Positions 975 through 57,514 of a DNA stretch of 60,341 nt are shown piece after piece. A model generated the notes under the pieces. The model worked only from the letters and a program-made list of their open reading frames with translations, did not search any database and had not been told where the DNA came from. This stretch comes from Anaerolineales bacterium HSG25 (lineage in GTDB: Bacteria; Chloroflexota; Anaerolineae; 4572-78; J111). The number at the start of each line of letters is the position of its first letter. Position 1 is the stretch's first letter. The position numbers were made by a program, and so were the translations under genes. Where the stretch lies: NCBI GenBank assembly GCA_030377865.1, contig JAUCGA010000024.1, positions 1 through 60,341 of the forward strand, written 5' to 3'.

Positions 975-1130
975 ATTTATGGAGGATAGAGGATTGAGGA
1001 CGGAGGATTGAGGAGGGAGGAAAAGCTTCAACGCGCCCTCCCTCCTCAATCCTCCAAACCTCAATCCTCCAAACCTCAATCCCTCCTCAAACCTCAAAAC
1101 CTCCATCCTCAAAACCTCCATCCTCTATAA
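975..1130. repeat. CT-rich degenerate minisatellite (CCTCCATCCTC / CCTCAATCCTCC units)
   Basis: Imperfect tandem copies of CCTCAATCCTCCAAA and CCTCCATCCTC fill the gap between the four-helix-bundle gene and the large kinase and run into the kinase's 3' end. There they encode its tail, which reads EDGGF twice. The same unit flanks the 5' side of the kinase and the neighbouring phosphatase gene. Confidence 0.75.
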
Positions 1131-4100
1131 AATCAATGATTTGTTGAAAGCGATATTTTTTTACCATTCTATTAATTTCTTTTACAAATCGACTGAACTT
1201 AGGGTCTAAGGAGTTAAGCTGTTTAAGATGAGTTTGAAGCCCTGTAATGTTCTGCATAGTTGCCAAAGTCAATAAGATTTTTAGGTCTTTTTGAGGAGGA
1301 ATAATCAAGGGGGCTTCTGATAGTCGTTCCCTTTTTATTTCAATCGTATCCTTATAAAACCAAGTTAGCTCCAAATGAGTTTCTAACTTGAGTAACAGTT
1401 CATCCATGTTAATTGGTTTAGCGATAAAATCATCACAGCCAGCGACTAAACTTTCTTGTTTTATCAGATCAGAGACACTGGCTGAAACGGCAATTACAAC
1501 TGTATCTTGTTGGGTGGACAGTTGCCGAATATGCCGCACAACATCAAACCCACTCATGCCGGACATGACCAAATCAAGCAAAATCAAATCGGGCTGAAAA
1601 TCAACCATCTTATTGAGACCATCCGGCCCATCAACGGCGGTTTTGATTTTGAAACCCAAAGGTAAGAGTAACCTGTTCAAAATATCAAGATTTTCAGACC
1701 GATCATCCACAAGCAAAATTTTGAATACTCCCTTGGGACTGGTGTATCCTATCACTCGTTTTTTCTTCGGTTTGATAAGTTTAGGCTCGCGGGAAACTTC
1801 TAGCAAATCGAGTTCAAACCAAAAGTGGCTCCCCTGTCCTATAATACTTTCCACATGTAGGTCACTATCCATCAATCGAAGTAATTTCTGACAAATTGCT
1901 AGTCCTAGCCCTGTTCCCTCAATATATTGCTCCTTGACTTGGTAAAAAGGCAAAAAAATACTAGCTAATAAGTCATGCGGAATTCCGATTCCAGTGTCCT
2001 TTACATCAAAACGGATTGTTTTTTTGTTCTTATCCTCGTGCAAAGAAGACGTAACGGTAATTTTGACTATCCCTTTCTCGGTATATTTAACCGCATTGCC
2101 TAACAAGTTTAGTAAAATTTGGCGAATACGTTTCTCGTCAGCATAAACATATTGCGGAACATCGGGCAAAATATTATACTTGAAGGTAAGTCTCTTTTGC
2201 TGTACCCGTACCTTAATCATTTCGATAATATTGGTCAGAAAATCTAAAAATTGAAACTCATACGGCTCAAGTTCCATACGTTCTGCCTCAATTTTGGAGA
2301 GGTCTAGAATATCATTGATTAAGGTCAGCAGATGTTTACCACTGCGATGAATGACCATGATGGCATCACCATGCATGGACATCAAATTTTTGTCAATTTG
2401 GAATATCTGAGTATACCCCAAAATAGCATTAAGGGGAGTCCGGAGTTCATGGCTCATATTGGCTAAAAACGTGCTTTTGGCTTGGTTAGCAACTTCGGCC
2501 ACTTCCTTGGCCTGTTGCAATGCTTCTTCTGACAGCTTACGCTCGGTAATATTCCGACTAATTAACATGACAGATGTAGTTTGTTGCTTGTGTTTGTGCT
2601 TGAGAGGCACAACTCGGGTTTCATACCAGTTACGATTTTGTCCATCAGGTCCAGATGCAATCGTCTCGTAGGTATCGGGTTTGCCGGTTCGGAAAACCCG
2701 TTCTAAAGAAGTCATCACAGTCTTACGATAATCAGGGATATAGTCATAAATCTTTTTGCCAGTTGTCTCTTCTACTGTATCATAAGTCACAGTACGATTT
2801 TTGGTCATAATTGTTCCATCATGCTCTACAGTTAAAACGATGTCGGGTATATTCTGGAGTAGAGAACGCCACCTTTCTTCCGATTCTCTCAACGCCTCTT
2901 CTGCCCGTTTACGTTCGGTGATATCCAGCGTATATTCAATCATCTGGGCAACTTCACCTTGGCTATTCAAGATGGGAAAGCCGTGAACCTCAACATTTAT
3001 GGGATTACCATCGTTATCAGAATGAATATGTTCTACAATAACAGGTTTTTTGGTTTGTTTTATCTCTTGCAGGGGGCAAATATGGTCTAAGCTATCACAG
3101 GGAGCAGGTCGATTATGGGTTAGAGCATGGCAGGTTTTTTGATTGCCATCGCCCAAGGACCATGCGTTTGAGTTGGCAGTAATGATGTGGTAATCATTTA
3201 CATCGATGACATAGAATGGATGAGACAGCGATTCTAAGATATTGTTCAGAAACTCATTTTGTTGTCGGAACTGCTCCTCTGCCTGTTTACGCTCGGTGAT
3301 GTCCAGCGCCATGCCGATAACACCGATAACATTCCCTTGCAAATCTTTGTGGGGCGAAAAGAAAACTTCAAAAAAGAGTCTACCTAGTGTCACGATACCT
3401 TCGTATGTCTCGCCATTCAAAGCCATTCTAAGCGCTTTGACCATATCTGGATAATCTCGATACATCTCAAACACGTATTGCCCCACTGCTTCCCCCGGTT
3501 TCAGTCCCACCGCCGACAGCATCTTGCCCTCAGAAAGAAGAGTTTTTCCTTCTCTATCGAACATGAACACAATCGGAGTACTGTTTGTCACGACGGTACG
3601 AAATAGTTCCTCGCTTTCCCGCAAGGCCGTCTCCACCTGCTTGCGATTGGTAATATCATAATTTATACCCGTTATGCGGATAGGATTACCATTATCGTCC
3701 CGTACAACGACGGCGGAAACTTTAAGATGCCGGACGGTGCCGTTTGGCCAGATAATACGATATTCTGCATTAAAATCTTTTTCTCCGCGAAGGGCCTGCT
3801 CTGTTTTCTCGTTGATTCTGGTCAAATCGTCGGGATGTATGCATCTCGACCAGTCCTCATAAGTACCTTTGAAATCCTTCGGATCAACACCAAAGAGGCG
3901 GAACATCCAATCATCCCACATCAGTTTGTTCTTGATTATATCCGCATCCCACACCCCAATCCCGGCAGAATCCGCCGCCAAAGTCATGCGCTGATTTACC
4001 TCCTTGAGATTTTGCTCCACCCGCTTGCGGGCAGTGATGTCCAGTGCCATACCGATAACGCCAACAACATTACCTTGAGAATCTTTGTAGGGTGAGTAGA

Positions 4101-7038
4101 AGACCTCAAAGAAGAGGTCATCTAGGGTAATGATACCTTCGTATGTCTCGCCATTCAAAGCCATTCTAAGCGCTTTGACCATATCTGGATAATCTCGATA
4201 CATCTCAAACACGTATTGCCCCACCGCTTCCCCCGGTTTCAGTCCCATCGCTGACAGCATCTTGCCCTCAGAGAGAAGAACTTTTCCTTCTCTATCGAAC
4301 ATGAACACAATCGGAGTACTGTTTGTCACGACGGTACGGAATCGCTTCTCGCTCTCCCGCAGGGCCGCCTCGACCTGCTTGCGCTCAGTGATGTCATGGG
4401 CGATGCCTACAACAACATCTTTTCTAAGTGGAATGACTGTCAAAATTGCAATCCGTTCTGTGCCATCTGCTCTTACATAAGTGGCTTCACCAACTTCCTG
4501 GGTTGTTTTAACTGTTTTTATTTGGTTAAGCCTTTGTTTTGCTCCTTCGGGGGTTAAATCGTTTGTTGTTTTTGTTTTTATTTCGGATAAAGAAAACCCC
4601 GTTAACCGTTCTGCGGCATAATTGGCATTGATATATTGACCTGTTTGTATATTAACCAGAAAGATAGCATCGTTGGAACGCTCAAATAAGGTACGGAACC
4701 GTTTCTCACTTTCCTCGATCTCTTGCTTCATCCGTTCGCTCTCGGTAATATCCTGTGCGGTTCCTATTGCTCGGACAAGTTGGCCCGCTTCATCATACAA
4801 CATTTCGGCTCTGGAATGGATAAAGCGCACCGTCCCATCAGCCTTGACAGTGCGATACTCAATAAACTCAGGCCCATGTCCGGCAAATAAATCCGTCATA
4901 GCCTGATCAAAAAGCTCTTTGTCGTCAGGATGAACCGATTGATAGATCAGTTCGTTTGATGGCCCCATGTTCTCTGCCAAACCATAAATCTGGTACATTT
5001 CATCTGACCAGTAAATCTCATCGTTCTGCACATCCCATTCCCAACTTCCAATGCTGGTAATCTGTTGCGCTTTGGCCAAGTTGGCTTCACTTTTTCTCAA
5101 CGCTTTTTTAATACGTTCATGCTCGGTGATGTCATGACTAAAATCTAATACAGCAAAAATATTTCCATTATCATCAAATAAAGGGATTTTATGGGTGTCA
5201 AAAATACGGGTTGAACCATCTGTCTGGATTATGGGGTTGTGAGAATGATGCAGAGTTTTACCAGCCAGCACCAGTTCGTCGTCAGTCCGAAAGCCTCTAA
5301 TACCTTTCTCTGGATTACCAAAAACCTGCTCTTCCGAGAAGCCTAGCGCCAAATCATCTTGACCATACATATCTACCTGTTTTTTACCCAAGGCATCGGC
5401 GATACTCCGGTTGGCTAATATCCAGCAAAAATTCCTATCTTTTATAAATATCCTATTCGATGTAGAATCAATAATCGTACGTAACAACTTCTCAGACCGT
5501 TTGCTATGTCGCATAATTCGTTTTAACGTCTCTTCCATCTGCTTATGCTCAGTAATATCCCGATGGGTTCCCACCACGCGCAGGGGTTTACCATTGTCAT
5601 CACGAACTACAACTTTCCCATGATCGTGGATCCATTTCCATTCACCTGATTTTGTCAGTAACCGATGCTCATTTTGATAGAAGAGTGTGTCTCCTTCCAA
5701 ATGGGCGGTCAATGTCTCCATGACAGTCGGCATATCATCCGGGTGCATCAATTTTTCCCAACTTCTGACATGTCCTTCGATTTCATCCAGTTCATAACCT
5801 AACATCTCAGTCCAACGTTGGTTAAAAATCACCTCACTGGTAACTATATTCCAGTCCCACAGTCCCAAATTTGAACCTTCTATCGCCAGTTCGAATCGTT
5901 CTTCACTTACGCGTAAGGCTTCCTCCAGTTGTTTGCGCTTGGTGATGTCCCTGATAATGATTTGGGCTGCTGGTTTGTCAGCATGGACAAATGGAATACC
6001 GGTTACTTCTGCGTCAAAAGGTTGCCCATCGAGCCTCATGAGTTTCTGTTCCAAAAGTGGCGATTGCGTATTTTCTTGCTGGGTCTGTTTGATTCGGTCT
6101 AATACAATTTGTCGGTAATCAGGATGAACAATATCTATAACAGGCTTACCGAGCATTTCTTCTGGACTGGAGGCACCAAAGAGTTTCAACCCAGCCGGAT
6201 TGATGTAGTCAAATGTTCCCTCACTATGAATGATAATTGCGTCTGGAGAAAACTCTACCAGACGACGATAGCGTAGTTCACTCTTCTGCAACGCCTCTTC
6301 GGTCAAACTACGCGCTAGGATATATTTTCTCAGACGATGGAAACCCCAACTAATTCCACCAATACCAGCTAACCATAGCACTCCTAACGATAGGGTATGA
6401 ATAGTTAGAGTGTGCCATTCTTTGGCTAACAGGGTAGCCATTGGTAACGAAATTCCAACGCCACCGCGTACATCTCCTTCTTTGTAGCCTTGGTGTTCGT
6501 GGCATTTTAGGCAAGGTTTTTCAGTCATCATGGGTTGCATCAATCGTAAATAGGGTTCACCATTTATTTCGATGAACGCCTGTACCTCTACCTCTCCCCG
6601 CTCAAATGCTTCTAAGGCGGCCCGTTCCCAATCATCGGGAGCATTTTCGGGACGTAATGGTTTGAGACTGGTAATATGTCCGGAAATACCGTATAACTCC
6701 GCAAAAGATTCGTTCATCTGACGCACCATGTAGGCTGGATTCATAAGCGTAAGACGCACTCCGGAAGGTGTTTCGATATCCCGTTCCGGTACATGGTCGA
6801 GATGAGGGTTGGGAGGAGTCTGTTCGTCAATCGGAACATAGACACCACCATGAGACGCGGCCCAAAAGCGAAAAGCTTGATCTTTGTTAAAATTAGATCG
6901 AGCTTCACCAATAGCTGTTTCTTCGGTCATTTGACGAAATTCTATGGTATACCAAACCCACAAACCAATGATAATGACCGTCCAGATAACAAGAAATGTC
7001 CACATGTAATATTTCAAATCGGTTGATCTAGTTTTCAT
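1087..7038 (-). CDS. Giant hybrid sensor histidine kinase: haem-type Tll0287-like domain, about 10 PAS domains, kinase and receiver
   Basis: 1983 residues. A first membrane helix (about 10-30) and a second (about 211-233) enclose an extracytoplasmic Tll0287-like (DUF3365) sensor domain ending in CLKCH (176-180), a c-type haem motif, and GDVRGGVGISLPM. About ten PAS/PAC units follow (about 250-1480), many ending in DITERK-like PAC tails. The ninth contains a Cys cluster (CHALTHNRPAPC...C). Then come the HisKA dimerisation domain with phospho-acceptor His1530 (SHELRTP), an HATPase domain (GTGLGLAI) and a receiver with Asp1822. The tail after the receiver is helical and resembles the tail of the kinase at 34783. 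PAS units 6 and 8 are near-identical copies. Likely a redox or ligand-responsive kinase passing phosphate to its own receiver; the ligand is unknown. The ATG at 7038 precedes a typical MKT...membrane helix start. Confidence 0.9.
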   Translation of the reverse strand: MKTRSTDLKYYMWTFLVIWTVIIIGLWVWYTIEFRQMTEETAIGEARSNFNKDQAFRFWAASHGGVYVPIDEQTPPNPHLDHVPERDIETPSGVRLTLMNPAYMVRQMNESFAELYGISGHITSLKPLRPENAPDDWERAALEAFERGEVEVQAFIEINGEPYLRLMQPMMTEKPCLKCHEHQGYKEGDVRGGVGISLPMATLLAKEWHTLTIHTLSLGVLWLAGIGGISWGFHRLRKYILARSLTEEALQKSELRYRRLVEFSPDAIIIHSEGTFDYINPAGLKLFGASSPEEMLGKPVIDIVHPDYRQIVLDRIKQTQQENTQSPLLEQKLMRLDGQPFDAEVTGIPFVHADKPAAQIIIRDITKRKQLEEALRVSEERFELAIEGSNLGLWDWNIVTSEVIFNQRWTEMLGYELDEIEGHVRSWEKLMHPDDMPTVMETLTAHLEGDTLFYQNEHRLLTKSGEWKWIHDHGKVVVRDDNGKPLRVVGTHRDITEHKQMEETLKRIMRHSKRSEKLLRTIIDSTSNRIFIKDRNFCWILANRSIADALGKKQVDMYGQDDLALGFSEEQVFGNPEKGIRGFRTDDELVLAGKTLHHSHNPIIQTDGSTRIFDTHKIPLFDDNGNIFAVLDFSHDITEHERIKKALRKSEANLAKAQQITSIGSWEWDVQNDEIYWSDEMYQIYGLAENMGPSNELIYQSVHPDDKELFDQAMTDLFAGHGPEFIEYRTVKADGTVRFIHSRAEMLYDEAGQLVRAIGTAQDITESERMKQEIEESEKRFRTLFERSNDAIFLVNIQTGQYINANYAAERLTGFSLSEIKTKTTNDLTPEGAKQRLNQIKTVKTTQEVGEATYVRADGTERIAILTVIPLRKDVVVGIAHDITERKQVEAALRESEKRFRTVVTNSTPIVFMFDREGKVLLSEGKMLSAMGLKPGEAVGQYVFEMYRDYPDMVKALRMALNGETYEGIITLDDLFFEVFYSPYKDSQGNVVGVIGMALDITARKRVEQNLKEVNQRMTLAADSAGIGVWDADIIKNKLMWDDWMFRLFGVDPKDFKGTYEDWSRCIHPDDLTRINEKTEQALRGEKDFNAEYRIIWPNGTVRHLKVSAVVVRDDNGNPIRITGINYDITNRKQVETALRESEELFRTVVTNSTPIVFMFDREGKTLLSEGKMLSAVGLKPGEAVGQYVFEMYRDYPDMVKALRMALNGETYEGIVTLGRLFFEVFFSPHKDLQGNVIGVIGMALDITERKQAEEQFRQQNEFLNNILESLSHPFYVIDVNDYHIITANSNAWSLGDGNQKTCHALTHNRPAPCDSLDHICPLQEIKQTKKPVIVEHIHSDNDGNPINVEVHGFPILNSQGEVAQMIEYTLDITERKRAEEALRESEERWRSLLQNIPDIVLTVEHDGTIMTKNRTVTYDTVEETTGKKIYDYIPDYRKTVMTSLERVFRTGKPDTYETIASGPDGQNRNWYETRVVPLKHKHKQQTTSVMLISRNITERKLSEEALQQAKEVAEVANQAKSTFLANMSHELRTPLNAILGYTQIFQIDKNLMSMHGDAIMVIHRSGKHLLTLINDILDLSKIEAERMELEPYEFQFLDFLTNIIEMIKVRVQQKRLTFKYNILPDVPQYVYADEKRIRQILLNLLGNAVKYTEKGIVKITVTSSLHEDKNKKTIRFDVKDTGIGIPHDLLASIFLPFYQVKEQYIEGTGLGLAICQKLLRLMDSDLHVESIIGQGSHFWFELDLLEVSREPKLIKPKKKRVIGYTSPKGVFKILLVDDRSENLDILNRLLLPLGFKIKTAVDGPDGLNKMVDFQPDLILLDLVMSGMSGFDVVRHIRQLSTQQDTVVIAVSASVSDLIKQESLVAGCDDFIAKPINMDELLLKLETHLELTWFYKDTIEIKRERLSEAPLIIPPQKDLKILLTLATMQNITGLQTHLKQLNSLDPKFSRFVKEINRMVKKYRFQQIIDFIEDGGFEDGGFEV
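3290..3625 (-). repeat. PAS-domain duplication inside the giant kinase, copy 2
   Basis: The stretch encoding PAS unit 8 repeats the stretch at about 4030-4365 encoding PAS unit 6. A block of more than 90 bases around 3405-3500 is identical in both, and the protein copies share long identical runs such as VVTNSTPIVFMFDREGK. The high identity at silent positions points to recent duplication or gene conversion. Confidence 0.85.
4030..4365 (-). repeat. PAS-domain duplication inside the giant kinase, copy 1
   Basis: Partner of the copy at 3290-3625. The two copies are separated by one different PAS unit (number 7), so the duplicated segment is not simply tandem. Confidence 0.85.
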
Positions 7039-7039
7039 A

Positions 7040-7067
7040 ATAAAATTGGGAGGATAGAGGTTTGAGG
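7040..7067. repeat. CT/GA-rich repeat tract upstream of the giant kinase
   Basis: GGGAGGATAGAGGTTTGAGG-type units related to the minisatellite at 975-1130. The last eight bases (GTTTGAGG, 7060-7067) form the left target duplication of the adjoining R1 element. Confidence 0.6.
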
Positions 7068-7158
7068 GTAAAAGTTCAGTAAAGTAGCTCTAGAAACCCG
7101 ATTTCTCAAAGAAATCGGGTTTCTGATGCTCTTTCTGGCGAGTTCACTGAATATTTAC
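7068..7158. mobile_element. R1 palindromic element (MITE-like), copy a
   Basis: 91 bp beginning GTAAAAGTTCAG and ending CTGAATATTTAC, so the ends are imperfect inverted repeats. The centre is a perfect hairpin AGAAACCCGATTTCT / AGAAATCGGGTTTCT. It is flanked by the 8-bp direct repeat GTTTGAGG (7060-7067 and 7159-7166), the footprint of transposition. There is no coding capacity. Confidence 0.85.
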
Positions 7159-7167
7159 GTTTGAGGT

Positions 7168-11208: not shown

Positions 11209-11299
11209 GTAAATATTCAGTGAACTCGCCAGAAAGAGTGTCAGAAACCCGATTTCTTAAAGAAATCGGGTTTCTAGGGCTACTTTACTGAACTTTTAC
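11209..11299. mobile_element. R1 palindromic element (MITE-like), copy b
   Basis: 91 bp, GTAAATATTCAG...CTTTTAC, in inverted orientation to copy a. It is flanked by the perfect 8-bp duplication AAATACAC (11201-11208 and 11300-11307). It lies between the nuclease gene and the M23/M14 gene. Confidence 0.9.
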
Positions 11300-25238: not shown

Positions 25239-25436
25239 ATGATTCGTCGTATTTATTTCGGTATGTTCGGTGCATTTTCAGTACCGCCATTGATTGGTTT
25301 GTTAAAAACTGAGGCCAAAATTGTCGCGGTGGTTGTTCCGATGTCAGAAACCGATCAAACTAACTTGCCTCAATTGCAACAACCAACCAACCGCTGGAAT
25401 GTTGCCAGTCATCGATCTATAGTAAATATTCAGTGA
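25239..25436 (+). pseudogene. Methionyl-tRNA formyltransferase-like N-terminal fragment cut off by an R1 element
   Basis: The first 35 residues, RRIYFGMFGAFSVPPLIGLLKT...VAVVVPM, match the N-terminal strand-helix-strand of formyltransferase-fold proteins (Fmt-like). A full protein would be about 300 residues. The reading frame runs into the end of the R1 element at 25422 and stops (last codons VNIQ come from R1). Nothing resembling the rest of the enzyme follows; the DUF503 gene begins instead on the other strand. It is best seen as a remnant left after R1 insertion and deletion. Confidence 0.6.
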
Positions 25437-25512
25437 ACTCGCCAGAAGGAACGTCAGAAACCTGATTTCTTTGAGAAATCGGGTTCTAGGGCGGGTTTTA
25501 CTGAACTTTTAC
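25422..25512. mobile_element. R1 palindromic element, copy c (no target duplication)
   Basis: 91 bp, GTAAATATTCAG...CTTTTAC, with one mismatch and one deletion in the central hairpin, so an older copy. The flanks differ (ATCGATCTATA and CCCGCGTC), consistent with a deletion or rearrangement next to it. Confidence 0.8.
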
Positions 25513-26327: not shown

Positions 26328-27668
26328 ATGAGTGATAAAATTATCGAAACCGAACCAACAGAAGTTGTTGATTCGACCCCAAGCCAAGAACCTGTTGCTG
26401 AGGTTAGTCCAACAGCAGTAGATACCGAACCGTCTACGGAAAAAATAACACCAGAAGTGGTTACCGACCCAGTGGAAGCTTCGACAGATGAACCGGATAA
26501 ATCAGTGGAAGAAGGCTCGACGACAGAAGCGGTTACAGCAGAAGTGACTGTTACGGAAGAAGCTTCAAGCCAAGAACCTGTTGCTGAGGTTAGTCCAACA
26601 GCAGTAGATACCGAACCGTCTACGGAAAAAATAACACCTGAAGAGGTTACCGAACCAGTAGAAGTTTCGACAGATGAACCGGATAAATCAGTGGAAGAAG
26701 GTTCGACGACAGAAGCGGTTACAGCAGAAGTGACTGTTACGGAAGAAGCGGTTACGGAAGAAACGGTTACAGCGAAAACGACTGTTACAGAAGAACCACC
26801 CCAAACTGTTGAGGAAGAAGCCACCGAAGTAGTTGCAAAAGCCGTTACGAAGAATAAAACTGAAGCCACAACTCCGCCTAAAAAGAAAAAGCGACGGAAG
26901 AAACTAACTCCAGAAGAAGAGGAGTCTATCCTAGCCTTAAAGAAAGGCCAACACATGGCCGGTAAAGTAAAAAATATTACCGAATTTGGAGCATTTGTTG
27001 ATTTAGGGATTGCTCAAGATGGATTAGTACATATTTCGCAATTATCCCGACATAAAGTAGAAAAACCTGAAGATGTGGTTACAGAAGGTCAGGAAGTAGA
27101 TGTATGGGTTAAAAAAGTTGACAAAAAACGAGGCCGTATTAGCCTAACGATGGTTCGCCCCGTCACCTTGCGTTTTAAGGATATTGCGGCAGACGCAGAA
27201 CTAGAGGGTACCGTGACTCGGCTAGAACCTTATGGTGCATTCATTGATATTTCTAGCGAACGAGATGGATTAGTTCATATATCAGAAATAACCCATGAAT
27301 ACATCAAACATCCAGAAGATGTGTTAACTGTTGAAGAAAAGGTCAAAATTAAAGTCCTAAAAGTTGATCATAAAAAACGACAAGTTGATTTATCAATTAA
27401 AGCTCTCCTGCCTGAACCACCCCCTAAAGAAGTACCTGCAACCAACAAACGATCTAACTCTCCCAGAAAATCATTCAAAAAACCTCAAGTGCCAGTTATA
27501 GAAGAAGTTCCGATGGTAACTGCAATGGCCGCGGCGTTTTCGAGCCTTAAAGATGGTGACAGCGCAAGTGCGGCAAACGACCGACATGTCCGTAATCGAG
27601 CTAAACAGAAAAAAGCAATGGCTTCAGTTCTTGACCGTACTTTAGCTGTAGAAACACCTGAACCATAA
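26328..27668 (+). CDS. S1-domain RNA-binding protein with acidic repetitive N-terminus
   Basis: 446 residues. Residues 1-180 are Glu/Thr/Val-rich and disordered, with a perfect-length internal duplication of 62 residues. A basic KKKKRRKK stretch follows. Two S1 (OB-fold) domains come next, about 205-280 (GKVKNITEFGAFVDLGIAQDGLVHIS) and about 290-370 (GTVTRLEPYGAFIDISSERDGLVHIS), then a basic tail with KRSNSPRKSFKK. This is a short relative of ribosomal protein S1, likely an mRNA-binding translation factor; true S1 usually has four to six such domains. The gene is monocistronic with its own promoter and terminator. Evidence for the S1 domains is strong; the precise role is inferred. Confidence 0.88.
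   Translation: MSDKIIETEPTEVVDSTPSQEPVAEVSPTAVDTEPSTEKITPEVVTDPVEASTDEPDKSVEEGSTTEAVTAEVTVTEEASSQEPVAEVSPTAVDTEPSTEKITPEEVTEPVEVSTDEPDKSVEEGSTTEAVTAEVTVTEEAVTEETVTAKTTVTEEPPQTVEEEATEVVAKAVTKNKTEATTPPKKKKRRKKLTPEEEESILALKKGQHMAGKVKNITEFGAFVDLGIAQDGLVHISQLSRHKVEKPEDVVTEGQEVDVWVKKVDKKRGRISLTMVRPVTLRFKDIAADAELEGTVTRLEPYGAFIDISSERDGLVHISEITHEYIKHPEDVLTVEEKVKIKVLKVDHKKRQVDLSIKALLPEPPPKEVPATNKRSNSPRKSFKKPQVPVIEEVPMVTAMAAAFSSLKDGDSASAANDRHVRNRAKQKKAMASVLDRTLAVETPEP
26382..26753 (+). repeat. 186-bp tandem duplication in the acidic region of the S1-domain gene
   Basis: Two units (26382-26567 and 26568-26753), near-identical in DNA, encode 62 residues each starting SQEPVAEVSPTAVD. The unit is a multiple of three, so the frame is kept. 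Confidence 0.9.
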
Positions 27669-34082: not shown

Positions 34083-34320
34083 GTAAAAGTTCAGTAAAGT
34101 CACCCTAGAAACCCGATTTCTTAAAGAAATCGGGTTTCTGACACTCTTTCTGGCGAGTTCACTGAATATTTAGGTTCTCTGGTAGATTCCGTGCAACTCG
34201 AAATTGTGTCCTGAATTAGATACTTTGATGGGGCAATCTTCCCGCAAGTTTAAAACTTGCGGGAAGATGATGACACAATCATGACCTTTGCACGAAAAGC
34301 CCCAAAGAGCCAATATTTAC
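34083..34320. mobile_element. R1 element, copy d, split by an R3 insertion
   Basis: The R1 body is 34083-34172 and its last base is at 34320; the R3 element and its target duplication lie between. The outer 8-bp duplication TACTCAAT (34075-34082 and 34321-34328) is intact. The hairpin AGAAACCCGATTTCT is perfect. Confidence 0.9.
34173..34311 (+). mobile_element. R3 element, copy b, inserted in R1
   Basis: 139 bp, GGTTCTCTGG...CCAAAGAGCC. Its target duplication AATATTTA (34165-34172 and 34312-34319) is the end of the R1 element. The core hairpin CTTCCCGCAAGTTT/AAACTTGCGGGAAG is perfect. The remainder of the gap to 34428 shows only decayed sequence. Confidence 0.92.
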
Positions 34321-38432: not shown

Positions 38433-38446
38433 TTAATGCTCCTTCG

Positions 38447-38536
38447 TAAATATTCAGTGAACTCGCTAGAAAGAGCATCAGAAACCCGATTTCTTTGAGA
38501 AATCGGGTTTCTAGGGTAGTTTTACTGAATTTTTAC
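38447..38536. mobile_element. R1 palindromic element (MITE-like), copy e
   Basis: 90 bp, GTAAATATTCAG...TTTTTAC, flanked by the perfect 8-bp duplication GCTCCTTC (38439-38446 and 38537-38544). It lies just upstream of the zinc-finger membrane protein gene. Confidence 0.9.
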
Positions 38537-38578
38537 GCTCCTTCCTTATATTTCACGAGTTCACGAGTTTTAAACGAT

Positions 38579-39196
38579 ATGCCAATCTGTCAAACCTGTC
38601 ATGGCTCAGGGCAAAAAGAAGTCCGAGTCGAAACAAAAAAAACCTGTCCCAAGTGCAACGGAAGTAAAAACCTGCCTGATGGTTCTGACTGCCCTCGTTG
38701 TAAAAAATTGGGTAAAATAGCAACTGGAAAATATAAACGGGGTAAAGAGTTGTGCGATACTTGCTGGGGGAGTGGTGAAGTTAGCCAGATGTCGGTGAAT
38801 ATATGGTTTGCTTTGCGAGCTGTGCCGACCAGTTTGTTTTTGCTTTTTGGTGGCCCAATTCTTGCTTTTGGAGCATGGCAACTAATCGCCTTTGAGCCAG
38901 TTAGCGCCCTAATTATCATCATTGCTATAACCGCATGGGGTATTTTGATGAACGGGTTTATTCGAGGATTGCTCAATTTTGGTCCAGTGCCTCAGTTCAA
39001 CTGGTTTTTGATGCGAGCCGGGGTAGCCTCTATTGCCGTGTTAACAGTGGGCTTCAACCTCGTCTGGATACTATTCTTTGTTTTGACTGACCCGCGTCAG
39101 TTAAGTTTGGCTGGTTTAGCGGTGTTGGGCGTGTGGGCTATGTGGATGTTTGTCCTGATTATTTTTGACCATCCTAAATCAGACGAGGATGATTAG
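38579..39196 (+). CDS. DnaJ-type zinc-finger protein fused to four membrane helices
   Basis: About 205 residues. The N-terminal 70 residues hold four Cys pairs in CxxCxGxG-like motifs (CQTCHGSG, CPKCNGSK, CPRCKKLG, CDTCWGSG), the zinc-binding pattern of the DnaJ cysteine-rich region, but there is no J domain. Four membrane helices follow, and the tail is acidic. The zinc part should face the cytoplasm. Function is unknown; a membrane chaperone or redox role is possible. The ATG at 38579 is preferred; codons upstream are R1 sequence. Confidence 0.75.
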   Translation: MPICQTCHGSGQKEVRVETKKTCPKCNGSKNLPDGSDCPRCKKLGKIATGKYKRGKELCDTCWGSGEVSQMSVNIWFALRAVPTSLFLLFGGPILAFGAWQLIAFEPVSALIIIIAITAWGILMNGFIRGLLNFGPVPQFNWFLMRAGVASIAVLTVGFNLVWILFFVLTDPRQLSLAGLAVLGVWAMWMFVLIIFDHPKSDEDD

Positions 39197-54055: not shown

Positions 54056-54146
54056 CTAAATATTCAGTGAACTCGCTAGAAAGAGTATCAGAAACCCGAT
54101 TTCTCAAAGAAATCGGGTTTCTAGGGCAGTTTTGCTGAACTTTTAC
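54056..54146. mobile_element. R1 palindromic element, copy f, between clpP and clpX
   Basis: 91 bp, CTAAATATTCAG...CTTTTAC with a perfect central hairpin. CTTGAG is found at both flanks (…CTTGAGA before and CTTGAGG after), a slightly decayed target duplication. Confidence 0.8.
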
Positions 54147-57423: not shown

Positions 57424-57514
57424 TTAAAAGTTCAGCAAAGTAGCTCTAGAAACCCGATTTCTCAAAGAAATCGGGTTTCTGACGTTCTTTCTGGCGAGTT
57501 CACTGAATATTTAC
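57424..57514. mobile_element. R1 palindromic element, copy g
   Basis: 91 bp, TTAAAAGTTCAG...TGAATATTTAC with perfect hairpin AGAAACCCGATTTCT. No clear target duplication is seen. Confidence 0.8.

What the first reader, a model, noticed from the sequence alone, without database searches (positions are those of the whole stretch)
7060..7166. R1: a 91-bp mobile palindrome (MITE) with GTAAA ends and 8-bp target duplications
Seven copies (7068, 11209, 25422, 34083, 38447, 54056, 57424) share ends GTAAAAGTTCAG / CTGAATATTTAC (imperfect inverted repeats) and a perfect central hairpin. Four have perfect 8-bp flanking duplications: GTTTGAGG, AAATACAC, TACTCAAT and GCTCCTTC. A fifth (54056) has a near match. 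This proves insertion by transposition rather than mere conservation. IS66-family elements are known for 5'-GTAA ends and 8-bp duplications, so an IS66-type transposase encoded elsewhere is the best candidate driver (inference). No transposase gene is in the window.
Basis: partly seen in the sequence, partly recalled or inferred. Interest (0 to 1): 0.8.

Follow-up and report, generated by a model that had tools for sequence, protein, structure and literature searches.

The report
Mobile 91-bp palindrome with flipping hairpin
This is a 91-base jumping DNA fragment without genes of its own, with over 450 matching ends in one bacterial genome, likely moved by an IS66-type enzyme that was not found; its central hairpin occurs with its loop in either orientation about equally often, which is likely the trace of the DNA-copying machinery repeatedly switching strands there.

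Summary
Confirmed: the seven window copies exist and R1 is a real MITE. Corrected: three, not four, have perfect 8-bp duplications (34083 has none), and six of seven hairpins are perfect. Genome-wide, the left end matches 451 times (backwards control 0). In a 1.46-Mb sample, 79 of 120 full copies have an 8-bp duplication with at most 2 mismatches (control 0.9%), and 11 of those 79 have clean empty sites in paralogous repeats.

The IS66 idea is partly supported. The ends (GTAAATATTCAG / GTAAAAGTTCAG) and the 8-bp duplication resemble ISBst12-like IS66 elements of the same class, but no IS66 transposase domain was found in the three carrier genomes, all incomplete. The ends are portable: a same-family genome carries them around another core.

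It recurs in a second, differently ended hairpin family (67/66 pairs) and a second species (15/13). Best explanation: template switching at a perfect inverted repeat, which would also keep the arms perfect. A new MITE, modestly interesting, and a natural assay of template switching.

The parts
7068..7158 (-). R1 copy, 91 bp, loop TTG; perfect 8-bp TSD GTTTGAGG at 7060-7067 and 7159-7166
11209..11299 (+). R1 copy, 91 bp, loop TAA; perfect TSD AAATACAC; 12 other places among the 40 scored in the assembly are 100% identical over 91 bp
11243..11275 (+). 33-bp core hairpin AGAAACCCGATTTCT-TAA-AGAAATCGGGTTTCT (15-bp arms, 3-nt loop)
25422..25512 (+). R1 copy with a damaged hairpin arm, loop TTG, no TSD
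34083..34173 (-). R1 copy, loop TTA; no TSD (TACTCAAT on one side only); abuts repeat D5 at 34173-34313
38446..38536 (+). R1 copy, loop TTG; perfect TSD GCTCCTTC
54056..54146 (+). R1 copy, loop CAA; first base C instead of G; CCTTGAG on both sides with a one-base shift
57424..57514 (-). R1 copy, loop TTG, no TSD

Best explanation
R1 is a 91-bp non-autonomous transposon (MITE) that likely is moved by an IS66-type (ISBst12-group) transposase not found in the held genomes, and its central 33-bp hairpin carries its 3-base loop in either orientation about equally often, likely because DNA polymerase template switching at the perfect arms keeps flipping it. Shown: short element, unequal inverted ends GTAAATATTCAG / GTAAAAGTTCAG, 8-bp target duplication, related empty sites, hundreds of copies, portable ends (a same-family genome has them around a different core), both loop orientations on identical backgrounds, and arms five to eight times less variable than the outer parts with a few paired changes. 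Inferred: the family of the transposase, and that the flips come from template switching during host replication rather than from the transposase; a second hairpin family with unrelated ends shows the same 1:1 ratio.
For: MITE: 451 left-end matches, control 0. The 40 places scored (of 519 first-look candidates) are 98-100% identical over at least 89 of 91 bases. Sample of 1,464,796 bp: 153 hits, 120 full, 108 of exactly 91 bp; 8-bp TSD perfect 53, 1 mismatch 19, 2 mismatches 7, of 120. Clean related empty sites: 12 of 79 TSD copies and 0 of 40 others, 11 of 79 after removing one match inside its own tandem repeat. Sister MITE in G004 with the same ends and another core: perfect 8-bp TSDs in 7 of 8 loci scripted and by eye in 2 more. 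IS66-like ends: five 1.5-1.6-kb IS66 elements of the class bounded by 8-bp TSDs (four exact, one with a mismatch) have GTAACTATACAG, GTAAGCGTTCAG / GTAACCGTTCAG, GTAACTACTAAG (two elements), GTTACTACCCAG; R1's left end matches the first and its right end the second at 10 of 12 bases. ISDge4, ISBst12 group: GTGACTACTCAGCA / GTAACTGCTCAGCA, 8-bp repeat (passages of PMC12898284). Flips: loops CAA 44, TTG 36, TAA 17, TTA 10, CAG 1 of 108. Five groups (21 copies) are identical outside the loop: 4 CAA/4 TTG, 5 TAA/2 TTA, and three pairs (CAA,CAA; TTG,TTG; TTG,TAA), i.e. 25 same, 26 flipped, 1 other pair; at distance 1: 38 same, 38 flipped, 24 other. Nearest-neighbour test, 47 copies: 17 same, 25 flipped, 5 other. 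Control triplets elsewhere in R1: 3 of 84 ever show the reverse complement, in at most 2 copies. Hairpin family B (other ends): 67 same, 66 flipped pairs at flank distance 0-1. Second species G001: CAA 15, TTG 13. Paired arm changes: 4 seen, 0.31 expected, maximum 3 in 2000 shuffles. Non-consensus rate: arms 0.011, outer parts 0.053 and 0.093. Template switching is published as giving arm homogenisation and spacer inversion (passages of PMC8604942) and loop inversions in bacterial rRNA (passages of PMC8794818).
Against: No PF03050 domain in the three carriers, though they are 80, 74 and 90% complete. A differently ended IS of the same genome also made an 8-bp duplication. Two of the five ISBst12-size elements lack CAG at positions 10-12 and one starts GTTA. 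34 of 120 sampled copies have no recognisable TSD. TSD frequency did not fall with divergence as an age model would predict. The one orthologous site aligned (R1 in G001, none in the own genome) was too diverged for a clean empty site. All 26 flipped pairs at distance 0 come from two groups of copies, so pairs are not independent. Arm changes: 24 single and 2 unpaired double against 4 paired. No reads were available to see flips at one locus.
Confidence: 0.65

Rival explanations
1. R1 is moved by a different 8-bp-duplicating transposase, for example a divergent MULE/IS256-like one, not by IS66; the GTAA...CAG ends are coincidence.
For: The own genome holds a 1,948-bp IS with a 613-aa transposase (weak hits: IS66 model 25 bits, IS256 21 bits, MULE 18 bits) that made an 8-bp duplication when it inserted into an R1 copy; no PF03050 protein in the carriers.
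Against: Its ends (CCCTGACTGACTTAA) are unlike R1's; IS66 elements of the class share GTAA-type ends and the 8-bp duplication.
Confidence: 0.3
2. The two loop orientations are separate master elements that amplified in parallel; nothing flips.
For: R1 has outer subfamilies, and the loop class (CAA/TTG versus TAA/TTA) does follow them: 1 other of 52 pairs at distance 0, 24 of 100 at distance 1. The identical groups are few.
Against: Orientation, unlike class, is unlinked to the outer haplotype: 4:4 and 5:2 in groups identical over 88 bp; nearest neighbours 17 same, 25 flipped; a 1:1 ratio in hairpin family B and in G001. It needs two masters for each haplotype in several families.
Confidence: 0.13
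3. The loop flips are an artefact of assembling high-copy short repeats or of polymerase hairpin artefacts in library preparation.
For: Draft assemblies with hundreds of near-identical copies; no reads could be checked.
Against: The loop class stays linked to the outer haplotype while orientation does not; control triplets do not flip; another species' genome shows it.
Confidence: 0.12
4. R1 is a conserved regulatory hairpin (terminator or boundary) spread by recombination, not a transposon.
For: The strand folds strongly (z = -7.5) and 0 of 120 copies lie inside an intact ORF of 120 aa or more (blind to genes it broke).
Against: 8-bp duplications and empty sites; Rfam search of the window found nothing.
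Confidence: 0.03

Closest known systems
IS66 family, ISBst12 group (e.g. ISDge4)
   Same: Ends GTAA...CAG, imperfect inverted repeats, 8-bp target duplication
   Different: R1 has no ORF and, beyond the ends, no stretch recognised as shared with the IS66 elements seen; no IS66 transposase domain found in the carriers
Bacterial MITEs (e.g. MITECca01, 169 copies, parent IS982-family; ERIC, 711 copies reported in Photorhabdus)
   Same: Short, non-autonomous, high copy, terminal inverted repeats (passages read in PMC9769881 and PMC10969869)
   Different: R1's parent is missing and its core is a 33-bp hairpin with the loop in both orientations
Template-switch spacer inversion / quasipalindrome correction
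   Same: Inverted short spacer between perfect arms, arm homogenisation (passages of PMC8604942; PMC8794818)
   Different: Those passages report ten spacer inversions in yeast genes and 69 loop inversions across rRNA trees; here the copies of one hairpin stand near 1:1 within a genome
REP/BIME palindromes
   Same: Repeated extragenic hairpins
   Different: R1 has transposon ends and an 8-bp duplication and begins GTAAA, not the GTAG tag (tag recalled, and in the title of PMC3733652 in the listing); a RAYT gene was not searched for

Membership tests
MITE (non-autonomous DNA transposon) | short, multi-copy, terminal inverted repeats, no transposase | tested here: met
   91 bp in 108 of 120 sampled full copies; 451 left ends
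MITE (non-autonomous DNA transposon) | fixed-length target duplication | tested here: met
   8 bp perfect in 53 of 120, at most 2 mismatches in 79 of 120; control 0.9%; 34 of 120 have none
MITE (non-autonomous DNA transposon) | empty sites holding one copy of the target | tested here: met
   11 of 79 TSD copies after the stricter check, paralogous sites; the one cross-species site aligned was too diverged
MITE (non-autonomous DNA transposon) | autonomous parent with the same ends | tested here: not met
   End pairs up to 4 kb apart in 0.46 Mb were 79-321 bp; the transposase loci looked at (L190, L282, L285-L288) are not bounded by R1 ends. Most of the assembly was not scanned this way
IS66 family, ISBst12 group | GTAA-type ends (CAG at positions 10-12 in 3 of the 5 class elements of this size) | tested here: met
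   GTAAATATTCAG and GTAAAAGTTCAG compared with class IS66 ends and ISDge4
IS66 family, ISBst12 group | 8-bp target duplication | tested here: met
IS66 family, ISBst12 group | IS66 DDE transposase in the same genome | tested here: not met
   PF03050: 0 in G000, G001, G004, present in 85 of 298 class genomes; NF033517 gives only sub-cut-off N-terminal hits in G000 and G004 and none in G001. Assemblies incomplete
Template-switch hairpin | spacer inversion between perfect arms on an otherwise identical background | tested here: met
   4:4 and 5:2 in groups identical outside the loop; control triplets
Template-switch hairpin | paired changes restoring the stem | tested here: met
   4 seen, 0.31 expected, maximum 3 in 2000 shuffles; but 24 single and 2 unpaired double changes
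Template-switch hairpin | flip observed at a single locus | not testable with these tools
   no reads or sister strains
REP element (RAYT-driven) | GTAG-tagged hairpin and a Y1 transposase (recalled) | tested here: inconclusive
   Ends read GTAAA; the RAYT gene was not searched for

The most novel reading that the evidence does not exclude
The 33-bp hairpin is a module in its own right: a family of palindromes with 15-bp arms and a 3-nt loop that unrelated transposon ends (GTAA/8-bp and TA-target MITEs) have captured and amplified in this lineage, and that flips so often by template switching that each genome holds hundreds of natural flip-flop recorders, possibly mixed within one population.
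Probability: 0.3. Interest if true: 0.72.

Novelty: new variant of a known kind. Interest (0 to 1): 0.47.

Why it matters
A MITE amplified to hundreds of copies without a detectable parent is a familiar puzzle; the same ends around another core in a sister genus suggest that the ends are the transmitted unit. The loop-orientation equilibrium is more useful: repeated hairpins on nearly identical backgrounds would let one compare the rate of template switching with point mutation inside one bacterium, and would explain why the core arms stay perfect while the ends decay. Hairpin loops in such repeats should not be used as markers of descent.

Tried and rejected
Autonomous partner: sought by end pairs in 0.46 Mb, by the flank of an odd left end at a contig edge (the flank matched other repeats), by PF03050 in 25 and 298 genomes, by NF033517 in four genomes and by the 613-aa transposase in three; none found has R1 ends. 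Ends pattern across 396 class genomes: only own 490, G001 27, G004 13, one stray in G382. Viral contigs, exact 21-mer: 0. Plasmids: no match. Rfam, window: nothing. IS66 ends: of 39 loci examined, I kept 8 with strong inverted ends (4 of 2.0-2.9 kb are counted with L123, seen only, whose ends start GTATCCG); low-scoring pairs with two TSD mismatches (L126, L127, L131, L135, L136) and L130 were dropped as likely chance, and the rest gave no ends. The idea that divergent copies have lost their TSD more often failed: TSD frequency was flat across score quartiles. The ORF test (0 of 120) cannot see genes that R1 broke and is not used as proof of target choice. Orthologous empty sites in G001: one alignment, intergenic part too diverged. 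Copies sharing both flanks (segmental duplicates): none in the sample. Papers: the listings (10 to 20 shown, often of more; one search was swamped by a common word) named nothing describing loop flips in a MITE or an IS66 MITE of this kind; I read passages only. This is not a statement about the whole literature. On rechecking, the empty-site count went from 12 to 11 and confidence from 0.66 to 0.65.

Full report
What was checked. The seven copies are in the sequence. Three have perfect 8-bp duplications (7068, 11209, 38446), 54056 has a 7-base match with the boundary shifted by one base, and 25422, 34083 and 57424 have none. The hairpin is perfect in six of seven.

Scale. The left end GTAAATATTCAGTGAACTCGC matches 451 times with at most two mismatches in the 4,988,988-base, 80%-complete assembly; the reversed control matches 0 times. 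From 80 stretches plus the window (1,464,796 bases, about 29% of the assembly) a profile search gave 153 non-overlapping hits, 120 of them full length, 108 exactly 91 bp; scaled up, about 520 hits. Of the 40 places scored (of 519 candidates), 12 besides the 11209 copy are identical to it over 91 bp.

Transposition. Of the 120 full copies, 53 have a perfect 8-bp duplication, 19 have one mismatch and 7 have two; flanks paired at random reach two mismatches or fewer in 0.9%. Four more have 7 bp, three have shifted 7-bp matches and 34 have none. Of 79 copies with a duplication and 40 without that could be queried, 12 and 0 have an ungapped related empty site at 85% identity or more. One of the 12 lies in the copy's own tandem repeat; the other 11 have an own-genome target with no R1 within 150 bp, for example one 99% identical over 117 bases. 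The frequency of duplications did not fall with divergence, which I had expected and did not find. In G001, the other species of the genus, 7 of 26 full copies have perfect duplications and 10 of 26 have at most two mismatches. At one orthologous place G001 has R1 and the own genome does not, but the intergenic part is too diverged to show a clean empty site.

Portable ends. In G004, another genus of the same family, 11 places match the end GTAAATATTCAGTGAA with at most one mismatch. Those read are elements of about 134-135 bp (one 206 bp with a nested hairpin) with the same ends but a core built on TAATTACC; 7 of 8 loci tested by script have perfect 8-bp duplications, and two more were seen by eye. 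In the class sample the ends matched in 4 of 396 genomes: these three and one stray. The core, in a T variant (AGAAACCCGTTTTCT), occurs without the ends in G030, G040 and G041, with unrelated flanks. In the own-genome sample all 126 perfect hairpins of this core family lie in R1, so capture of a free-standing hairpin is an inference from the other genomes.

Which transposase. IS66 elements of the same class that I could bound by 8-bp duplications fall in two sets: 2.0-2.9 kb with GTAAGCG ends (one GTATCCG), and 1.5-1.6 kb with GTAACTATACAG, GTAAGCGTTCAG / GTAACCGTTCAG, GTAACTACTAAG (two) or GTTACTACCCAG. R1's ends agree best with the second set, which by size and ends corresponds to the ISBst12 group (my assignment); the published ISDge4 of that group has GTGACTACTCAGCA / GTAACTGCTCAGCA and an 8-bp repeat (passages of PMC12898284). 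Against this, PF03050 finds nothing in the three carriers while it is present in 85 of 298 class genomes. A different IS in the same genome, 1,948 bp with a 613-aa transposase that only weakly resembles IS66, IS256 and MULE models, sits inside an R1 copy with an 8-bp duplication and ends unlike R1's. I therefore do not file R1 as an IS66 member; I say it has IS66-like ends and likely works with such an enzyme.

The flipping core. R1's ends are unequal, so each copy can be oriented. In the 108 copies of 91 bp the loop reads CAA 44, TTG 36, TAA 17, TTA 10 and CAG 1; CAA/TTG and TAA/TTA are reverse complements, and neither ratio differs from 1:1 (p 0.43 and 0.25). Five groups, 21 copies, are identical at all 88 other positions: 4 CAA/4 TTG, 5 TAA/2 TTA, and three pairs (CAA,CAA; TTG,TTG; TTG,TAA). 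As pairs that is 25 same, 26 flipped, 1 other, all flips from the two large groups; at one difference it is 38, 38 and 24. Nearest neighbours at distance 0-1: 17 same, 25 flipped, 5 other. The loop class follows the outer haplotype at distance 0 and the orientation does not. Elsewhere in R1, 3 of 84 triplets ever show the reverse complement, in at most two copies. Hairpin family B, in MITEs with other ends (one of them nested in R1 at a TA), gives 67 same and 66 flipped pairs at flank distance 0-1. G001 gives CAA 15, TTG 13, and TAA, CAG and TGA once each, 31 of 40 stretches readable. Family C is too small to say. Arms differ from consensus at 1.1% of sites against 5.3% and 9.3% for the outer parts, with 4 paired changes where shuffles give 0.31 (maximum 3 in 2000), 24 single changes and 2 unpaired double ones.

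Mechanism. Polymerase template switching at short inverted repeats is described as homogenising arms and inverting spacers (PMC8604942, passages), and loop inversions in bacterial rRNA genes are reported (PMC8794818, passages). It accounts for both the near-1:1 loops and the clean arms. Because two hairpin families with different ends show the same ratio, a host process is likelier than the transposase. The rate is only bounded: in the two large groups orientation is mixed before any substitution appears in the other 88 bases, so flipping would have to outpace point mutation of the whole element. That flipping goes on now at single loci is inferred, not seen.

Verdict. A new MITE with IS66-like ends, no parent found, and an unusual inverting hairpin core. 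The transposon part is ordinary; the flip equilibrium is the part worth following.

Noticed in passing
L190 (own genome C96) 2201-4148: A 1,948-bp insertion sequence with ends CCCTGACTGACTTAA / CCCTAGCTGACTTAA and a 613-aa transposase, inserted in an R1 copy with the duplication CACTGAAT; only weak IS66/IS256/MULE model hits.
   Followed up: partly
L146:11891, L203:3887, L188:2778 and 6704, L224:13382: Two other MITE families (ends CAGTCTTTCAGATAA / TAGATGTTCAGATAA and AGTAGTTTTCAGAACTAACTTGT / AGTAACTTTCATTTCTAAGTTGT) sit in R1 copies at the same TA beside the hairpin, which looks like TA-target IS630-type insertion (family assignment recalled, not tested).
   Followed up: partly
window about 59223; also L178:2401, L150:9105, L219:18276, L195:9865, L215:11709: A standalone 33-bp hairpin AGACCTGACAGGTTT..AAACCTGTCAGGTCT (one variant AGAGCTGACAGGTTT) with unrelated flanks in six places of the sample; its mode of spread is unexplained.
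   Followed up: no
L169 (own genome C25) about 1445-4350: Many hairpins of the CCCGCAAG type close together, some in tandem with CGGGTCA linkers.
   Followed up: no
L285, L286, L287, L288: Fragments of transposases related to the 613-aa one, several at contig edges; L286-L288 share an IS end GCCCAACGGCAA.
   Followed up: partly
window 38495: The first TTG of ORF 38495..39196 is the R1 loop in its TTG orientation; a flip to CAA would remove that possible start.
   Followed up: no
window 1087-7038: 1983-aa ORF with about 30-bp repeats spaced mostly 354-390 bp, suggesting tandem domains.
   Followed up: no
window 26380-26751: Two 186-bp tandem units, 96% identical, inside an ORF.
   Followed up: no
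L112 and L118 (G004): R1-like elements whose tips read GTACA instead of GTAAA, with different cores; L112 has an 8-bp duplication with one mismatch.
   Followed up: no
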